Below are positions 36,754-54,676 of a stretch of DNA of 64,000 nucleotides, piece by piece. Position 1 is the stretch's first letter; each line of letters starts with the position of its first letter. Where the stretch lies: contig NZ_PVZC01000001.1 of assembly GCF_003002095.1 (NCBI RefSeq), positions 868,001 through 932,000 of the forward strand, in the 5' to 3' direction. Source of the stretch: Allonocardiopsis opalescens (GTDB lineage Bacteria > Actinomycetota > Actinomycetes > Streptosporangiales > Streptosporangiaceae). The notes beneath the pieces are model-generated. The model saw nothing but the letters and a program-made list of their open reading frames with translations, was not told the origin of the DNA and searched no databases. Made by a program: the position numbers and the translations under genes.

Positions 36754-37827
36754 ATGATCACCCGCATCGAGATCGACGGCTTCAAGTCCTTTCTGGACTT
36801 CACCCTCGACGTGCCGCCGTTTCTGGCCCTGGTCGGCTCCAACGCGGGCGGGAAGTCGAACCTGTTCGACGCGCTGGGGTGTCTCGCGGACCTCCAGACG
36901 GTTGAGCTTGACGCCGTCCTGGCCGCACGCCGCGGCCGTCCGCGCGAGTTGTTCCACTGGGACAGCGAGCGGCGGCCGGTGGAAGAGTTCACCATCAAGG
37001 CCGATGTCCTTGTCGATTCCCGAGTGGACGGCGTATGGCAGCGGTCACCCGCCTTCGTTCAGGGAATAATCGGTCTGAACGTCACGAACCAGGCCGACAG
37101 CATCTCACTCATCGGCATGGAGCCGGAATCCGGTTGGTCGCCGTCCTCCACATGGCGGTGGTGCACGCCGGAACCGATGGAGATGCGGAAAGCCGCCCCG
37201 GCCGCAGACCGATACGCACTGCGCGAGAACGGGTCCAACCTGGCGGCGGTGCTAGGCCGGATGCGCGACTCCCAAGCGTTCAAGGACTTGGTCGTCGATC
37301 TCGTCGCGCTCGTCCCCGGGGTCACCGGCGTCGAGCCGGTTCTTGACGAGCGCGACCAGGAATGGTCGTTCGACGTGGTGTTCAGCGGCCAGGGAGCTAT
37401 CCCGGCGACCCTCGTCTCCGACGGCACCCTGCGCATCATCGCCCTGCTCGCCGCCCTGTACGATCCCGACCACCCCGGCGTGCTGCTGATCGAGGAGATC
37501 GAGAACGGCCTGCACCCCGGGCGGATCGCCGAACTGCTGCGGCGGATCGCGCGTCGCGTCACCGACCTGTCCGACCCGGCGTCGGCGGAAGAGCCGCTGC
37601 GCCAGGTCGTCCTCACCAGCCACTCGCCCGTGGTGGTCGGCGAACTGGTACGCGAGCGCCCCGGCTCCGTCGTCTTCCTGGACACCGTGACACGCGTCCA
37701 GCCGGGCGGTCCGACCTCCCGGATCACCCGCGCCCGCCCGGTGCGGGACGCGGGCGAGCCCGGCACCTATGTCTCGCCGCGCGAGGTGAGCCGCTACCTG
37801 GGCACCGTCCGGCAGGACGCCCAGTGA
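36754..37827 (+). CDS. ABC-type AAA ATPase (AAA_21/SMC-like), putative defence component
   Basis: 357 residues. N-terminal ITRIEIDGFKSF and the Walker A GSNAGGKSN (28-36) are those of RecF/SMC-like single-domain ATPases. The signature-like LVSDGTLR is at 220-227, Walker B LLIEEIE at 244-250 and the H-loop TSHS at 288-291; the coiled-coil of SMC proteins is absent and replaced by about 170 residues. It begins 36 bp after gatA and its stop overlaps the start of the next gene. Base composition in 36900-37350 is less GC-rich than the neighbours, suggesting transfer. Known relatives are ATPase halves of two-gene phage-defence pairs; function here is inferred. Confidence 0.85.
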   Translation: MITRIEIDGFKSFLDFTLDVPPFLALVGSNAGGKSNLFDALGCLADLQTVELDAVLAARRGRPRELFHWDSERRPVEEFTIKADVLVDSRVDGVWQRSPAFVQGIIGLNVTNQADSISLIGMEPESGWSPSSTWRWCTPEPMEMRKAAPAADRYALRENGSNLAAVLGRMRDSQAFKDLVVDLVALVPGVTGVEPVLDERDQEWSFDVVFSGQGAIPATLVSDGTLRIIALLAALYDPDHPGVLLIEEIENGLHPGRIAELLRRIARRVTDLSDPASAEEPLRQVVLTSHSPVVVGELVRERPGSVVFLDTVTRVQPGGPTSRITRARPVRDAGEPGTYVSPREVSRYLGTVRQDAQ

Positions 37828-38390
37828 CCCGCTTGCTGATCCCGGGTCTGCTGGCGGAAGGCGCCTCCGACGAACTCTTCCTCGGCCGCGTCATCGTGCG
37901 GCAACTCCGGCGCTCCACCCAGGCATCGGCCCGCTGCGAGGTCGACGTGGGCGATGTGGCGCTGTCCGATCTGCACACCGTCGCGGACGGCGAGCGGGTG
38001 GCACAGGCCGCCGCGGAACTGGCGGCCGAGTGCCACGTGCTCTTCGTCCACCACGACCACCGCGAACGCGGCAAGGCCGACCGGCTGCTCGAACGCCTCA
38101 CGGAACTGGGCGTCGGCTGCCCCGCCGTGCCGCTGATCCCGAAGCGCGAGACCGAGGCGTGGCTGCTCGCCGATCCGGCGGCGTGGACCGGAATCGGGGG
38201 AGCGAACCGGCAGCTGCTTCCGGCGCGGTCCGCGGACGCCGAGCGGGTGCACGACCCCAAGGCACTGCTGGAGCGGATCGTGCCCCGGCGTCGGGCCGTC
38301 GATGAGTGCCTGGAACTACTGGGCGAGACGACGGACCTGGAGGTCCTGGACCGGCTGCCCGCCTACCGGGCGTGGGTCGAGCGGACCTAG
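37824..38390 (+). CDS. TOPRIM/DUF4276-like protein, partner of the ATPase
   Basis: 188 residues from the GTG at 37824; start and upstream stop overlap as GTGA, so translation is coupled. LLAEGASDELFL (Glu12, Asp16) matches the acidic first motif of TOPRIM folds, VLFVHHDHRERG (Asp78) the second acidic region, and IPKRETEAWLLADP (Glu109, Glu111, Asp117) is characteristic of DUF4276-type proteins. A metal-dependent nuclease activity would fit; it is not demonstrated. Acting with the ATPase as an effector/sensor pair is the simplest reading. Confidence 0.8.
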   Translation: MTRLLIPGLLAEGASDELFLGRVIVRQLRRSTQASARCEVDVGDVALSDLHTVADGERVAQAAAELAAECHVLFVHHDHRERGKADRLLERLTELGVGCPAVPLIPKRETEAWLLADPAAWTGIGGANRQLLPARSADAERVHDPKALLERIVPRRRAVDECLELLGETTDLEVLDRLPAYRAWVERT

Positions 38391-49776: not shown

Positions 49777-49808
49777 GTCGGGCGCGCACCCATGGGTGCG
49801 CGCCCGAC
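49777..49808. terminator. Bidirectional terminator after ilvC
   Basis: GTCGGGCGCGCACCC and its exact complement separated by two bases (AT), a 15-bp perfect inverted repeat, between ilvC and the convergent small gene at 49861. Confidence 0.85.
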
Positions 49809-49860: not shown

Positions 49861-50304
49861 TCAGTACGGATACCGTTCCGACCGTCGGATCGCTCGGTCC
49901 AGGAACTCGTCCAGGCCGGTGCCGGCCTGTTGCTCGTCGATGATGAGTTCGATCAGGAGTTCCACGAACGTGCGGGCGAACTGATCGGAACTCAAACCCG
50001 CGACCGCTTCACCGTCACCGAGCGCTCCGCGCAACACGCGCTCGGCGGTGAGCGGATCGATCGCTCCGGCCCTGGACGGGTCACGGGCGCGTACCCGCGC
50101 CACGTAGGAGACGAGGTCCGCTCCTGACCAGGTCCGCCCGAAGCGGCGTTCAGCGGCATCCCGCAACGCGCTCACGAGGAGCACCTTGAGTCCTGGAGGC
50201 GAACCGCTCTCCGGGAGCCGGTCATGCAGCCGATCCAAGGGCTCAAGATCACCCGTGAGAATCGAACGAAGAGCCGCAATGTCTTCGGCGGTCACGGCAA
50301 CCAC
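49861..50304 (-). CDS. Small helical protein, HerA-cluster (paralog 1)
   Basis: 147 residues from the GTG at 50304. Predicted mostly helical and acidic, no signal or membrane segment. It shares the layout of the next gene: AEDIAALRSILTGDLEPLDRLHDRL, then AAERRFGRTWSGADLVSYVARVRARD, PLTAERVLRGALGDG and a final LLIELIIDEQQAGTGLDEFLDRA helix. The stop of the upstream paralog is 4 bp before its start, so they are cotranscribed. I do not know a function for this family; presence as a pair behind a HerA ATPase is the main clue. Confidence 0.75.
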   Translation of the reverse strand: MVAVTAEDIAALRSILTGDLEPLDRLHDRLPESGSPPGLKVLLVSALRDAAERRFGRTWSGADLVSYVARVRARDPSRAGAIDPLTAERVLRGALGDGEAVAGLSSDQFARTFVELLIELIIDEQQAGTGLDEFLDRAIRRSERYPY

Positions 50305-50308
50305 GAAG

Positions 50309-50770
50309 TCACTGTTCCTGTTCTCGGCCCAGCCAGTTGTCGGCGAGTTGCCGAACGTCGGCCAGGAACGAGTCCAGTTCGGCTCCGCTCATCCCTTCTT
50401 CCTGGACCACCCTCCCCAGCACCCTCGTCTGCGCACTGACCATGGTCTTGGTGTCGATCTCGTCGACCGGAACGTCCTCCCCGAGGGAATGGCGGATGAG
50501 CAGCTCGGCAGCGTGAGGGTCCACGTCCTCGGCGGCTGCGTCGGACTGTGCGCGCAGACGGCCGACGAAGTCGATGATGTCGGCATACTCGTACCCCGTC
50601 GAGAACTTCCGGTCGACGGCCTCGAAGAAGCCCGCGGCGATCAGAGCCGTGTAGCCGTCCTGGGCGGCGCGTCGATCGAGCCGGTCGAACAACCCTCGAT
50701 ACTTCTCGACCTCACCGGAGAGGAGGGCACGAAGAGTGGCAAGCTGTTCATCGGTCACTGCCAAGGCCAT
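50309..50770 (-). CDS. Small helical protein, HerA-cluster (paralog 2)
   Basis: 153 residues from the ATG at 50770. TDEQLATLRALLSGEVEKYRGLFDRL, AVDRKFSTGYEYADIIDFVGRLRAQ, PHAAELLIRHSLGED and GMSGAELDSFLADVRQLAD align with the blocks of its neighbour, so the two arose by duplication and diverged. Its start lies 16 bp inside the end of the preceding disordered-protein gene, indicating translational coupling. Soluble, helical, function unknown. Confidence 0.75.
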   Translation of the reverse strand: MALAVTDEQLATLRALLSGEVEKYRGLFDRLDRRAAQDGYTALIAAGFFEAVDRKFSTGYEYADIIDFVGRLRAQSDAAAEDVDPHAAELLIRHSLGEDVPVDEIDTKTMVSAQTRVLGRVVQEEGMSGAELDSFLADVRQLADNWLGREQEQ

Positions 50771-51822
50771 TGCACTCTCTTTATCGTTTCGGCGAACTTG
50801 TTCCGGCCCCAGATAAGCAGCTGTGCTGTTCCGAGAGAAGCGACGAACAACGCGGAGGTGGCGTCTCCGCCATCTATGCCGTGTTGCGGGGGCGGCGCGG
50901 GATCTGATCCCGGGACCCTCGTTTCGGGGTGGCCGGTCGGCGATGGGGCTTCAAGATCGACGACCATACGGTCCCCGGTCGCGCTGGTGGCATCGAGAGC
51001 GTCCTCGCCGCGACGAAAGGCGGTCCTCAACGCCCGTTCGCTTCGGGAGCGCTTGTCGCCGTGCATGTCGGCCAACTCTTGACCCGTGGGCGGGCGCTCA
51101 GGTCTCAGCGGATCACTGATGTTCTGGAGGCCGGCGTCGCCGGGCTGGGTCGGGTCTCCTGAGGGTGCCGGATCGGCGCGATACCGCGTCCCTTCGCCAT
51201 TCGCGCTTTCGTCGTCTGACGACGCGAGCCGTTCGACCGACGACGGCTGAGCCGGCTGGTCGGGCTCGTCGAAGGGCTCCGGGGACTCGGCCGGGGAGCG
51301 GCGGAGCGTCGTCGGGTCCGATTCGGGCGCGGCGGCGGTCGCGCGGCGGTCAGCGCTCCACACTCCTTCGGGCCTTTCGGCGGGATCGGGTGCGGTGTCA
51401 GCCGGGTCGGGAGACCTCGGTGCGTCACTGTCCGACTCGGCGGTCCGGCCCGGGCCGCCACGGAACTCCGCGGCCGGCCATGCGACCGGTGGCTGCTCGG
51501 ACGGAGACGGCGGACCGTAGATCTCTGCCGAGATGTCGTGCCAGCTCGGGCCGGAGGCGCGTTCCGAAGCGGCCGTCCGGGTGCCGGGCCAGTCCGAATG
51601 GACGTCGTCGGCTGGTGGCGCGTCGTCCTCGGGCAGGTCCCAGTCGCCGGGGGAGTCGTCCCAGGAGTCGAAGGCCGCCTCCAGGGCGGCGCGGTTGCGG
51701 CGGCCGAGGTCGGAGTCGGGGGCGCCGAGGGCGGCGTCCATGGTGCGGGGGCGGTCGGGGGCGCCGGACGGGCGGTCGCCGCTGTCGTGGGCGGGGCGCA
51801 GGATCCGGTCCATCGCGTTCAC
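50755..51822 (-). CDS. Acidic disordered protein with C-terminal hydrophobic tail
   Basis: 355 residues from the GTG at 51822, which has GGAGG 6 nt upstream; ATG 51813 (MDRILRP) is an alternative. Residues about 20-290 are Pro/Ser/Asp/Glu-rich and look unstructured (for example DAPRSPDPADTAPDPAERPEG). A basic amphipathic stretch (KRSRSERALRTAFRRGEDAL) and a C-terminal hydrophobic segment (ATSALFVASLGTAQLLIWG) before NKFAETIKRVQWPWQ follow. It may be membrane-associated at the tail. It begins 85 bp after the HerA gene. No recognisable domain. Confidence 0.7.
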   Translation of the reverse strand: MNAMDRILRPAHDSGDRPSGAPDRPRTMDAALGAPDSDLGRRNRAALEAAFDSWDDSPGDWDLPEDDAPPADDVHSDWPGTRTAASERASGPSWHDISAEIYGPPSPSEQPPVAWPAAEFRGGPGRTAESDSDAPRSPDPADTAPDPAERPEGVWSADRRATAAAPESDPTTLRRSPAESPEPFDEPDQPAQPSSVERLASSDDESANGEGTRYRADPAPSGDPTQPGDAGLQNISDPLRPERPPTGQELADMHGDKRSRSERALRTAFRRGEDALDATSATGDRMVVDLEAPSPTGHPETRVPGSDPAPPPQHGIDGGDATSALFVASLGTAQLLIWGRNKFAETIKRVQWPWQ

Positions 51823-51907
51823 CGCACACCTCCGTGCCCGACGTGTGCTGACCACTTTCCCACGCGGCGGGTGGCGGCGCCATGCCGTTGGGCGCGGCCG
51901 TATCCGG

Positions 51908-54676
51908 TCATGGGTGCACCAGGTCCCACAGGGTCGGGATGCGCAGGACCCAGCGGCACTGGGTGTGCTTGGCGAGGACCATGGTGCCCGCCGTGTAGGT
52001 GCCGTCGGGGGCGAGGCGTTCGGTGTCGGCCACGGCGGGGGTGTCGAGGTCGGAGCCGAAGAGCGCGGCGCGGATCTCGGCGGCGGTGGCGGCGGTCAGG
52101 CGGGGGCGCCGCCCGGCCTGTACTGCGCGGACCAGTTCGGCCATCGGCGCCGTGACCCAGGCCGTGCCGGGGTCGCTGCCGACGAGGCCGTGGCGGTGGG
52201 CGGTGACGGCGACGGTGCGGGCGAGGTCGGCGGGGTCGCCGATGCGGCGCAGGGCGTCGGTGCGGCGGGTCACCGCCTGGTCGACGAGCGCCGCGACCAG
52301 GGGGGCGCGGAGGCGTACGTCCAGGCGCCTGAGCAGGTTGTGCACGATGGGCGGGCGGGAGGGCAGCGGATTGCCGGTCAGGTGGCCCATGATCAGGATC
52401 TCCGTCCACAGCCGGAGCCAGGCGCCGGCGTCCGTGGCCGCCGTGGCGGCGAGTTCCGCGAAGCGGAGCTCGCGGAGGGTGCACGGGCCGCCGGGGGCCG
52501 TGACGCAGGGGCAGGACGGGCTGTGCACCTGCGCGATCGGCGGGGTCGGGGACGGGGTGACGGCCTCGCGGCCTTCGCCGAGGGGGATCTGGACGCGCAG
52601 CGGCCGGTCCATGCCGTCGGTGAAGACGGCGGCCTGGCCGGGGCGCAGCGAGACGACCTGCCTGGACTGGTCCTCGTCGAGGTTCATGGCGGAGCCGACC
52701 AGCTCGCGGTCGTCGGCGGCCGGCAGCCGGTGCACGATCTTGCAGGCGGTGTTCTTGACGACGTCGGGGATGAGCTTGGCGGGGATCTGCTCGGCGACGA
52801 CGATGCCGGTGCCGTAGGCGCGGATCTCGGCCAGCAGTGACGCGAACAGCTCCACGGCGTGGGCGGCGGGGGAGCCCTCGCCCCGGTTGCGGAGCAGGCG
52901 GTGCGCCTCCTCGATCACCAGGACGTGCCGCAGGCCGCCGCGGGTGCCGGCCCGGGCGCGCAGCCGCAGGTGCTCGACGATCCGGATGATGAGCAGGCCC
53001 ATCAGGAAGGCCTTGTCCTCGTCGGAGGCGATGTCCTCGATCTGCAGCACCACGTTGCGCTCCAGCAGCTCGGCCACGCTCACGGGGTGGCCGCCCTCGA
53101 AGAAGCGACCGGCCGAGCCGGTGCGCAGTGAGCGGATGCGCACGTCGACGAAGCCGGTGACGTTGGCGGCGATCTCCGGCCCGTAGCCCACCTCGGCCAC
53201 GGTCGCCAGCGCCGTCGCCTGCAGCTGCGCCAGGGTCGGCACGGTCGGCACGGTGCCGGCCACCAGCGGTCCCGAGGTGACGGTGTCCCAGCCGTTCGCC
53301 CGGTAGACCTCCTGGAGGGCCTGGGCGATGATCTGCGGGAAGGGCTCCTGGGCGTCGAACGCGGCCAGGAACAGCGCCCGCACCAGGTCGATGTGCGCCT
53401 GCACCGGGTAGCCGGGCTCGGGCGCCAGCGGATTGACCGACACCGGCACGGCGTCGGTGTCGGACGGATTGATCACGGTGAGCCGGCCGAGGGGCCCCTC
53501 GACGCCGGCCAGCCGCCCGCCCATCGCCGCGTACTCCGACTTGGCCGGCTCGATCGCCAGCCACGGCACCCCGCCCCTGGCCAGCTGCTCCAGCAGGTGC
53601 CGCACGGTCTGCGACTTGCCGCCGCCGGTCGCGCCGGTGACGAAGGTGTGCCGGTTCAGGGTGTCGCGGGAGACGGTGAACGGGCCGACGGGCCGGTCGA
53701 GCCCGTCCAGGATCGCGCCGAGGCCGAGCCGGTCGCCGGCCGCGCCGCCGGCCTGGCCTTCGCCCTCGTTGGTCACGTCGAAGTGCCCCGACTCCGTCAC
53801 CCGCAGCCCGGGCACCTCCCGCCGCGCCACCCCCACCAGCGCCGGCACCACCCCGGCGGTGGCGGTGAACGGGACCGCGAAGCCGCCCGGGTCGGCCGCC
53901 GGCTCGCGCAGCGCCACGGCCCGGTCCAGGGGGAGCCCCTGCAGCCCGGTGCGGAGCCGGTAGCCGTGCCCGCCCGGCTCCACGGAGCCGGTGAGCACGG
54001 GGGCGAGGCGGGCCAGCCGGTCGGGCGAGTCCGCGCCCACCAGGACGCGGATCCGCCACAGCCCGCCGTCGGCGAAGCGGTCGAGTTCGGCCAGCCGCCG
54101 CTCGGCCGCCTCGACGTCGAAGCGGGCCGTCGCCGAGCGGTCCGAGCGCAGCCGCAGGTGGGAGAGCCGGTCCTGCACCTCGGCGCGGACCGCGTCCAGA
54201 TCGCCGCCGGGCTCGGCCAGCACGAGCCAGGCGAAGCGCTCGGCGATCAGCGCCGTCAGCGACAGCTCGAACAGCGATGGCCGCCGCGCCTCCTCGGCGG
54301 ACCGGTCCGCTCCGTCCTCCACCAGCGGCGGCGCGGGCCGGCCCGCGCACACGCCCCACACCAGCCCGTCGAGCAGGCCGTCCAATCCCTCCGTGCCCTC
54401 GGTGAGTGGGTGGCCCCGGGACTCGGTGGGGAAGAGCAGGTTCAGCTCTGCGCCGCCGGGAGTCGCGGGCGCCGCGACGGGTCCGGCGTTGGTGACCAGC
54501 CGCAGCGCGGCGCCGCCGCCGGGCGACACCCAGCCCGACACCAGCGGACGGTCCCGGCGCGCCGCGGTCAGCGCCGCCGGGAGCACGGAGACGAAGTCGC
54601 CCTCCACCGAGGCGGCCCGCGCGGGCGCGGCGACCGACGCGACCCGGAACCACGGTCCCCACAGGCGTGACAGCAC
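51908..54676 (-). CDS. HerA/FtsK-like hexameric ATPase (DUF87-type)
   Basis: 922 residues from the GTG at 54676; the true start is uncertain because the frame stays open to 54913, over the start of the divergent VOC gene. Walker A GATGGGKSQT is at about 348-357, the HerA-type Walker B VLVIEEAHRLL at about 587-597, and IVVAEQIPAKLIPDV after it. About 340 residues of unrecognised N-terminal domain precede the motor, and a cysteine cluster, CPCVTAPGGPC, follows it. HerA relatives pump or unwind DNA and appear in repair and phage-defence systems; here it heads a four-gene unit of unknown role. Confidence 0.87.
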   Translation of the reverse strand: MLSRLWGPWFRVASVAAPARAASVEGDFVSVLPAALTAARRDRPLVSGWVSPGGGAALRLVTNAGPVAAPATPGGAELNLLFPTESRGHPLTEGTEGLDGLLDGLVWGVCAGRPAPPLVEDGADRSAEEARRPSLFELSLTALIAERFAWLVLAEPGGDLDAVRAEVQDRLSHLRLRSDRSATARFDVEAAERRLAELDRFADGGLWRIRVLVGADSPDRLARLAPVLTGSVEPGGHGYRLRTGLQGLPLDRAVALREPAADPGGFAVPFTATAGVVPALVGVARREVPGLRVTESGHFDVTNEGEGQAGGAAGDRLGLGAILDGLDRPVGPFTVSRDTLNRHTFVTGATGGGKSQTVRHLLEQLARGGVPWLAIEPAKSEYAAMGGRLAGVEGPLGRLTVINPSDTDAVPVSVNPLAPEPGYPVQAHIDLVRALFLAAFDAQEPFPQIIAQALQEVYRANGWDTVTSGPLVAGTVPTVPTLAQLQATALATVAEVGYGPEIAANVTGFVDVRIRSLRTGSAGRFFEGGHPVSVAELLERNVVLQIEDIASDEDKAFLMGLLIIRIVEHLRLRARAGTRGGLRHVLVIEEAHRLLRNRGEGSPAAHAVELFASLLAEIRAYGTGIVVAEQIPAKLIPDVVKNTACKIVHRLPAADDRELVGSAMNLDEDQSRQVVSLRPGQAAVFTDGMDRPLRVQIPLGEGREAVTPSPTPPIAQVHSPSCPCVTAPGGPCTLRELRFAELAATAATDAGAWLRLWTEILIMGHLTGNPLPSRPPIVHNLLRRLDVRLRAPLVAALVDQAVTRRTDALRRIGDPADLARTVAVTAHRHGLVGSDPGTAWVTAPMAELVRAVQAGRRPRLTAATAAEIRAALFGSDLDTPAVADTERLAPDGTYTAGTMVLAKHTQCRWVLRIPTLWDLVHP

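What the first reader, a model, noticed from the sequence alone, without database searches (positions are those of the whole stretch)
49861..54676. HerA-centred four-gene cluster of unknown function
A large HerA/DUF87-type ATPase (Walker A GATGGGKSQT, Walker B VLVIEEAHRLL) with a long unrecognised N-terminal domain and a CPC...C cluster is followed on the same strand by a disordered acidic protein with a hydrophobic tail and two paralogous small helical proteins. The last three overlap or nearly touch (16-bp overlap, 4-bp gap), so they are one unit. HerA ATPases pair with effectors in several anti-phage systems, but none of these partners is a known nuclease or NADase family. This could be an undescribed DNA-handling or defence system.
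Basis: partly seen in the sequence, partly recalled or inferred. Interest (0 to 1): 0.75.

Follow-up and report, generated by a model that had tools for sequence, protein, structure and literature searches.

The report
Three-gene cassette with translocase-type ATPase
Four neighbouring genes in an actinobacterium belong to a patchily inherited system, apparently undescribed, in which a pump-type ATPase seems to work with multi-copy three-gene cassettes, seen here in only one bacterial family; what it does is still open.

Summary
The four genes are real and at the stated places. The large ATPase is a HerA/VirB4-type pump; its predicted structure aligns with VirB4 over residues 1-711, so the "unrecognised" N-terminus is probably VirB4-like. 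The other three (Acid, H1, H2) match no family searched. They form a cassette: H homologues were found in 46 of 341 genomes of the window's family and in 1 of 396 phylum-wide genomes (the window's own), with 11 matches, the most scored, in three genomes. H1 and H2 are two old subfamilies in fixed order. Elsewhere the cassette goes with a paralogous ATPase (HerA-B) and membrane partner (U650-B): 35 of 38 U650-B genomes carry H, against 11 of 303 others, and on a tree of one genus the two appear and disappear together. A membrane M48 peptidase joins in two genera. In the window's genome the only HerA gene is missing from its usual place between U650 and MurT-GatD and sits with the cassette instead. 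I infer a membrane translocase served by dispersed substrate/adaptor cassettes, analogous to type VII LXG-Lap loci; this is not shown. Defence and developmental DNA pumping remain open. Nine searches of the held library returned no paper describing it.

The parts
51908..54676 (-). HerA/VirB4-type ATPase, 922 aa, GTG start; the only match to this family in the genome
53606..53635 (-). Walker A GATGGGKSQT (residues 348-357)
   Evidence: coordinates derived from the codon numbering
52892..52924 (-). Walker B VLVIEEAHRLL (residues 585-595)
   Evidence: coordinates derived from the codon numbering
52481..52513 (-). Three-Cys cluster (C722, C724, C732); C722 and C732 are invariant in the 48-sequence alignment
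50755..51822 (-). Acid: low-complexity acidic protein with conserved C-terminal tail (tail model 50761-51099)
50309..50770 (-). H1: all-helical protein (predicted), first-position subfamily
49861..50304 (-). H2: paralogue of H1, second in order; in the tree it pairs with G020's H2 outside the main H2 clade
49777..49808 (.). Perfect 32-bp palindrome between convergent ilvC and H2, a plausible two-way transcription end
   Evidence: 0 expected by chance; role inferred; the terminator scan did not list it

Best explanation
The window holds a three-gene cassette (Acid-H1-H2) joined to a VirB4/HerA-type ATPase that has left the conserved U650-HerA-MurT-GatD setting. Shown by comparison: cassettes are a lineage-restricted, multi-copy, patchily inherited module that co-occurs with a paralogous ATPase (HerA-B) and its membrane partner U650-B, and on a tree of one genus appears and disappears together with them. 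In two genera a membrane M48 peptidase, and near many cassettes WhiJ/BldB-type regulators, join in. Inferred mechanism: the ATPase ring and membrane-anchored U650 form a translocase at the cytoplasmic membrane. Each cassette supplies one client, Acid, carried by its hydrophobic and basic C-terminal tail, and two cognate helical proteins, H1 and H2, that act as a heteromeric adaptor bringing Acid to the ATPase, as Lap1/Lap2 do for LXG proteins in type VIIb secretion. Where present, the M48 peptidase would trim the client at the membrane. What Acid does once moved is unknown; contact or competition between hyphae is my guess.
For: Co-occurrence: 35 of 38 U650-B genomes have H, 11 of 303 others (Fisher 1.4e-34); in genus g82 29 of 29 against 5 of 36 (1.7e-13). 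U650-A tree of 60 g82 genomes: G289 and G310 have both beside sisters with neither; G255 and G266 have neither inside a clade with both. H1 and H2 separate by position: 49 first and 48 second rows need 2 changes, about 33 in shuffles. HerA model aligns to VirB4 TrwK entries across residues 1 to 703-711 (497-560 residues, Z 11.6-13.9). HerA-B and U650-B are neighbours in 15 of 15 loci L220-L234. U650 has hydrophobic segments near its N-terminus. In 36 of 36 Acid tails the best 17-residue stretch (mean hydropathy 0.96-2.02) is followed by net positive charge, His counted. An M48 model hits 15 of 15 loci L220-L234; HExxH is present in 6 of 6 sequences printed; the gene was not found in four genomes lacking U650-B. 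HerA is missing from the MurT locus of the window genome. T7SSb precedent: PMC9600955, passages read.
Against: No secretion or interaction data. H1/H2 show no sequence or clear fold match to WXG100, Lap or anything else. Acid has no recognised toxin or enzyme domain. U650 as a degenerate ATPase is by eye only: profile comparisons found nothing. No VirB6/VirB8-like channel part was looked for or seen. Five g82 genomes (G268, G279, G292, G301, G313) and G000, G020, G026, G007, G029 carry H without U650-B, and G358 has only a distant U650 besides U650-A; the H matches of G292, G007 and G029 are weak (1.5e-4, 6.6e-6, 2.5e-4). Three U650-B genomes lack H (G017, G230, G361; the first two under 90% complete). 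The window genome gave no M48 match, nor did G309, which has U650-B and H. In the window genome U650 lies on another contig. The window's Acid lacks the N-terminal motif seen in 23 of 36. The bit cut-off for U650-B (98) was set after seeing the scores.
Confidence: 0.42

Rival explanations
1. Developmental DNA translocation: HerA pumps DNA at hyphal septa or spores (as FtsK/SffA-type motors do), and the cassettes, under WhiJ/BldB-type control, tune or block it.
For: HerA, VirB4 and FtsK motors share the core fold. XRE(DUF5753) genes lie within 6 kb of 29 of 62 cassettes, 22 of them downstream on the same strand, and HATPase genes near 21, against 1 and 0 of 31 control loci. In Streptomyces such loci control sporulation, and iosA, of unknown fold, is the output of one (PMC10294661, PMC4255298, passages read).
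Against: No H was found in 295 of 341 genomes of the family, so a core developmental role is unlikely. No such regulator was found within 6 kb of the window cassette. Regulator linkage is mainly in one genus.
Confidence: 0.22
2. Anti-phage or anti-plasmid system in which HerA is the motor and Acid-H1-H2 the sensor or effector.
For: HerA drives several defence systems (PDB titles); PADLOC HerA and mad8 profiles match. Patchy, multi-copy, low-GC3 genes (H median 0.725 against 0.90 for other genes in the loci) suit a conflict system. Some cassette neighbours match PADLOC models, two type I methylases strongly.
Against: No nuclease, NADase or other effector domain in Acid, H1 or H2. Most neighbour hits shown are helicases and kinases that need not be defence genes. 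The window's H1 has no match in plasmid or phage collections or viral contigs.
Confidence: 0.16
3. Cell-wall accessory: HerA and U650 serve peptidoglycan chemistry together with MurT-GatD, and the cassette is a modifier.
For: U650 lies directly upstream of HerA in 67 of 76 loci and MurT directly downstream in 47 of 78 (in the locus in 72 of 78).
Against: G007 has U650-MurT-GatD without HerA; seven more family genomes without a HerA match keep a U650 match (G006, G008, G010, G021, G023, G030, G035). No MurT lies near HerA-B in 15 of 15 loci L220-L234.
Confidence: 0.08
4. Not a system: HerA happened to land next to three unrelated genes.
For: None of the 80 HerA loci has the cassette.
Against: Same order in three further loci; genome-level co-occurrence of the cassette with HerA-B's partner U650-B.
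Confidence: 0.03

Closest known systems
VirB4 ATPases of type IV secretion (TrwK of R388)
   Same: Predicted fold aligns across residues 1-711, core with Walker A and B
   Different: Extra C-terminal region with Cys cluster; no type IV secretion neighbours recognised; partners of unknown families
HerA motors (HerA-NurA; Nezha Sir2-HerA; HerA-DUF4297)
   Same: Pfam HerA_C and DUF87 above cut-off; core fold Z about 13-19
   Different: No NurA, Sir2 or DUF4297 partner; NCBIfam anti-phage HerA score 41 against a cut-off of 800
CedD DNA-translocating ATPase
   Same: Best NCBIfam match of HerA, 61.7 bits
   Different: Far below its cut-off of 600 bits
T7SSb LXG-Lap1-Lap2 effector cassettes (PMC9600955, passages read)
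   Same: Works-like analogy: one client with two small helical cognate proteins and one pump-type ATPase
   Different: No Pfam match of any kind in H1/H2; client lacks a recognised toxin domain; H proteins are about 150 aa with seven predicted helices, not proteins of about 100 aa
WhiJ/BldB/AbaA paralogue loci of streptomycetes (PMC10294661, PMC4255298, passages read)
   Same: Many cassettes of genus g82 sit beside XRE-DUF5753, DUF397 and HATPase genes
   Different: Acid-H1-H2 not described in the passages read; regulators not found at the window cassette
MADS defence (PADLOC mad8)
   Same: Best PADLOC match of HerA, 66.6 bits
   Different: Acid, H1 and H2 match no PADLOC model up to E 1

Membership tests
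FtsK-HerA/VirB4 pumping ATPases | Walker A and B in a RecA-type core | tested here: met
VirB4 | VirB4-type N-terminal domain before the core | tested here: met
   Model aligned to TrwK entries across 1 to 703-711, 497-560 residues, rmsd 5.7-6.5, Z 11.6-13.9; model pLDDT 71 and the domain was not folded alone, so moderate strength
Canonical HerA | HAS-barrel N-terminal domain | tested here: inconclusive
   HerA structures align over roughly 265-360 residues, mainly the core; the domain was not tested alone
HerA-NurA, Nezha, HerA-DUF4297 | Partner nuclease or NADase encoded beside HerA | tested here: not met
   No such Pfam, NCBIfam or PADLOC hit for Acid, H1, H2
Type IV secretion system | VirD4 coupling protein and envelope channel subunits | tested here: inconclusive
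   TM-ATPase upstream of U650 at the MurT locus aligns weakly to HerA's P-loop (hhalign probability 30%); channel parts not searched for
T7SSb LXG cassettes | LXG client with DUF3130/DUF3958 or WXG100 partners | tested here: not met
   No Pfam match for Acid, H1, H2 or the 11 H members
WhiJ/BldB/AbaA loci | Adjacent XRE-DUF5753 and DUF397 genes | tested here: not met
   None found within 6 kb of the window cassette; XRE-DUF5753 near 29 of 62 cassettes overall
MADS | Full set of mad genes | not tested
   Only the four window proteins, and 82 cassette-neighbour proteins from other genomes, were scanned
M48 peptidases (the fifth part, in genera g82 and g59) | HExxH motif and Peptidase_M48 match | tested here: met
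   HELGH/HELSH in 6 of 6 sequences; Pfam 24.5 bits against cut-off 20.3 for the one tested

The most novel reading that the evidence does not exclude
A new class of membrane translocation system in actinobacteria: a VirB4/HerA-type motor with a membrane partner and an M48 peptidase, serving many dispersed, separately regulated cassettes, each with a disordered client and its own pair of helical adaptors. In the window's lineage the motor of the MurT-GatD locus itself has been captured by a cassette.
Probability: 0.3. Interest if true: 0.85.

Novelty: new variant of a known kind. Interest (0 to 1): 0.62.

Why it matters
It links a common but, as far as I found, uncharacterised VirB4/HerA ATPase locus of one large actinobacterial family to a lineage-specific set of cassettes, and gives concrete, testable partners: U650, Acid, H1, H2 and an M48 peptidase. 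If the translocase reading holds, a secretion-like system with many clients has been missed in these bacteria. If the developmental reading holds, it points to outputs of WhiJ/BldB-type switches, whose targets are poorly known.

Tried and rejected
Known-family explanation of H1, H2 and Acid: no Pfam or PADLOC hit up to E 1, no PHROGs hit up to 0.1, and in NCBIfam one FxSxx-COOH match for H1 at E 0.13, 12.5 bits against a cut-off of 28. PDB by sequence: best E 0.049 for the H profile, not credible. H1 model (pLDDT 78, two-sequence alignment): Foldseek best E 0.93 in PDB and 0.58 in viral models, VIA-align best Z 4.4, all within noise for helical proteins; no claim of a new fold follows. Mobile-element carriage: no match of the window's H1 in plasmids, phages or viral contigs. 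Defence island: of 221 neighbour genes called, 82 were scanned; hits were helicases, methylases and kinases in the 25 of 108 families shown. The matching control set from HerA-A loci was drawn but not scanned. U650 as a HerA-like pseudo-ATPase: profile comparison with HerA gave probability 0.1% and with the TM-ATPase 0.6%, so it stays a by-eye lead. The sigma-70 promoter scan found nothing.

Limits and rows dropped: one search scored at most 11 candidates per genome and at most 9, so copy numbers are lower bounds and absences rest on a first look. The 62 cassettes come from the loci I fetched, not from every match; L236 repeats one already in L178, and L129 and L226 hold weak or partial H hits. 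In one search one wrong-frame hit (L123) and frames of 160 residues or fewer were dropped. In one search the g82 tree uses 60 of 65 genomes (G258, G272, G287, G307 and G316 not fetched). Six g89 genomes with 70.6-86.8 bits to U650-B were counted as lacking it; with them the count is 36 of 44 with H against 10 of 297. Gene names such as ilvBNC, glyoxalase, gatA and gatB in the window are by eye from the translations, not from a tool.
Full report
What is there. HerA ends 85 bp before Acid. A perfect 32-bp palindrome (49777-49808) separates H2 from the convergent ilvC. The Walker motifs and a three-Cys cluster are present. Third-position GC is 0.97 for HerA, like its neighbours, but 0.80, 0.79 and 0.73 for Acid, H1 and H2. 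Low GC3 is a general trait of the cassette (H median 0.725, n = 116; median of other genes in the loci 0.90), so it does not by itself show a recent arrival here.

The ATPase. Pfam gives HerA_C and DUF87 above cut-off. An AlphaFold2 model from 48 sequences (pLDDT 71, pTM 0.66) finds VirB4, HerA, DndH and coupling proteins. The core matches DndH-C (Z 26.8), VirB4 4ag5 (Z 23.8) and HerA 4d2i (Z 18.9). Full-length VirB4 (TrwK) entries align across residues 1 to 703-711 with 497-560 residues (Z 11.6-13.9), against about 330-360 for most HerA structures. I read the N-terminus as VirB4-like, with moderate certainty.

Where HerA normally sits. A scan of genome contigs kept 80 loci of 191 relatives. 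Where there is enough sequence, a 650-700-residue protein (U650) lies directly upstream in 67 of 76; MurT lies directly downstream in 47 of 78 and somewhere in the locus in 72 of 78. None of the 80 has an H, Acid-tail or M48 hit (flanks up to 8 kb, some shorter). In the window's genome the corresponding locus reads TM-ATPase, U650, MurT, GatD with no HerA, U650 and MurT being about 110 bp apart, and the window HerA is the genome's only match. In the HerA tree the window gene falls beside this MurT-linked clade on a long branch, a place the program marks as unsure. HerA has therefore most likely moved; a third lineage is not excluded.

The cassette. A profile of 11 H proteins hit 46 of 341 genomes of the window's family and 1 of 396 phylum-wide genomes, the window's own. 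Three genomes gave 11 matches, the most that were scored, so true copy numbers may be higher. Of 62 cassettes in the loci I fetched, the Acid-tail model abuts H in 37; the rest may carry diverged tails. H proteins form 48 pairs, 14 singles and one triplet. On the tree, first- and second-position proteins separate with 2 changes against about 33 in shuffles; exceptions are the second-position proteins of the window, G020 and G011, which fall on the first-position side. This fits an obligate heteromeric pair duplicated as a unit. Acid is low-complexity and acidic. In 36 of 36 tails the most hydrophobic 17 residues (mean 0.96-2.02) are followed by net positive charge, and 23 of 36 carry an N-terminal motif SRx[EDH][YS], mostly within PPPDxPGxPGQPSRLES-like stretches, against 1.3 expected in shuffles. 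The window's Acid lacks that motif.

The link to the ATPase. The order HerA-Acid-H1-H2 occurs in the window, twice in G013 and once in G011. In other genomes the cassette lies beside a paralogous HerA-B and U650-B, or elsewhere in the genome. U650-B (98 bits or more) is in 38 of 341 genomes; 35 have H, against 11 of 303 without it (Fisher 1.4e-34). In genus g82 it is 29 of 29 against 5 of 36 (1.7e-13). Fisher tests ignore kinship, so I built a U650-A tree of 60 of the 65 g82 genomes. The 26 double-positive rows need 7 changes; G289 and G310 stand beside double-negative sisters, and G255 and G266 lack both inside a double-positive clade. In g82 no genome has U650-B without H; five have H without U650-B. 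Outside g82, G017, G230 and G361 have U650-B without H.

A fifth part. A membrane protein with Peptidase_M48 similarity and an HExxH motif lies at or near U650-B: its model hits 15 of 15 HerA-B loci L220-L234 and L174, L175, L176, L178 and L204 (six of these sequences made the model). It was found in G289, G310 and G274 and not in G285, G317, G266 and G255; nor was it found in G309, G000, G013, G011, G020 or G026.

Regulation. XRE-DUF5753 genes lie within 6 kb of 29 of 62 cassettes (22 downstream on the same strand), DUF397 genes near 27 and HATPase genes near 21; among 31 control loci round HerA the counts are 1, 1 and 0. These are the partners of WhiJ/BldB/AbaA loci, which bear on sporulation in Streptomyces (PMC10294661 and PMC4255298, passages read). 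The controls are HerA loci, not random loci, so the contrast is indicative. No such gene was found near the window cassette.

How it may work. The shown part is the association and its history. The inferred part is a membrane translocase (HerA ring plus membrane-anchored U650) served by cassettes, with H1-H2 as cognate adaptors for Acid, by analogy with Lap1/Lap2 and LXG proteins (PMC9600955, passages read). The alternatives, developmental DNA pumping and defence, use the same facts. I give the translocase reading 0.42.

Known or new. The ATPase belongs to a known superfamily. H1, H2 and Acid match no library searched, and nine literature searches returned no paper describing this combination. 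The parts have no names to search by, most papers were seen only as listings, and the library lacks most subscription journals, so this is weak evidence of absence. 'g82' is probably Actinomadura, since the HerA-A of G269 groups with Actinomadura latina; this is inference.

Noticed in passing
L219:7655-14020; same layout, with HerA, in L138, L142, L133: Conserved chromosomal set next to MurT-GatD: a multi-TM protein with a weak P-loop resemblance (TM-ATPase), U650 and usually HerA. I found no known function for it.
   Followed up: partly
L220-L234, L174, L175, L176, L178, L204: Membrane M48 peptidase (HELGH/HELSH where checked) convergent with or near U650-B in the HerA-B loci.
   Followed up: partly
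L134:1-8233 and L139:300-8692: Another HerA-like gene (about 1,120-1,140 aa) in two genomes, preceded by three similar-sized unknown genes in the same order; looks like a different conserved operon.
   Followed up: no
window 36754-38390: ATPase-like gene overlapping a small partner gene by 4 bp, between gatA-like and gatB-like genes; resembles two-gene OLD-type pairs by eye.
   Followed up: no
L129:915-4834 (G029): Several weak, partial H-family matches close together; possible distant relatives.
   Followed up: no
window HerA, C-terminus (51908-52200): The window HerA lacks residues that are nearly invariant in its relatives (alignment columns about 1124-1154 of A5), so its C-terminal region has diverged.
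   Followed up: no
L220, L221, L224, L225, L230 (site); L228, L174, L204 (other sites): HerA-B/U650-B/M48 share the same flanking genes in a group of g82 loci (12 loci by clustering) but have other flanks elsewhere, which suggests movement.
   Followed up: no
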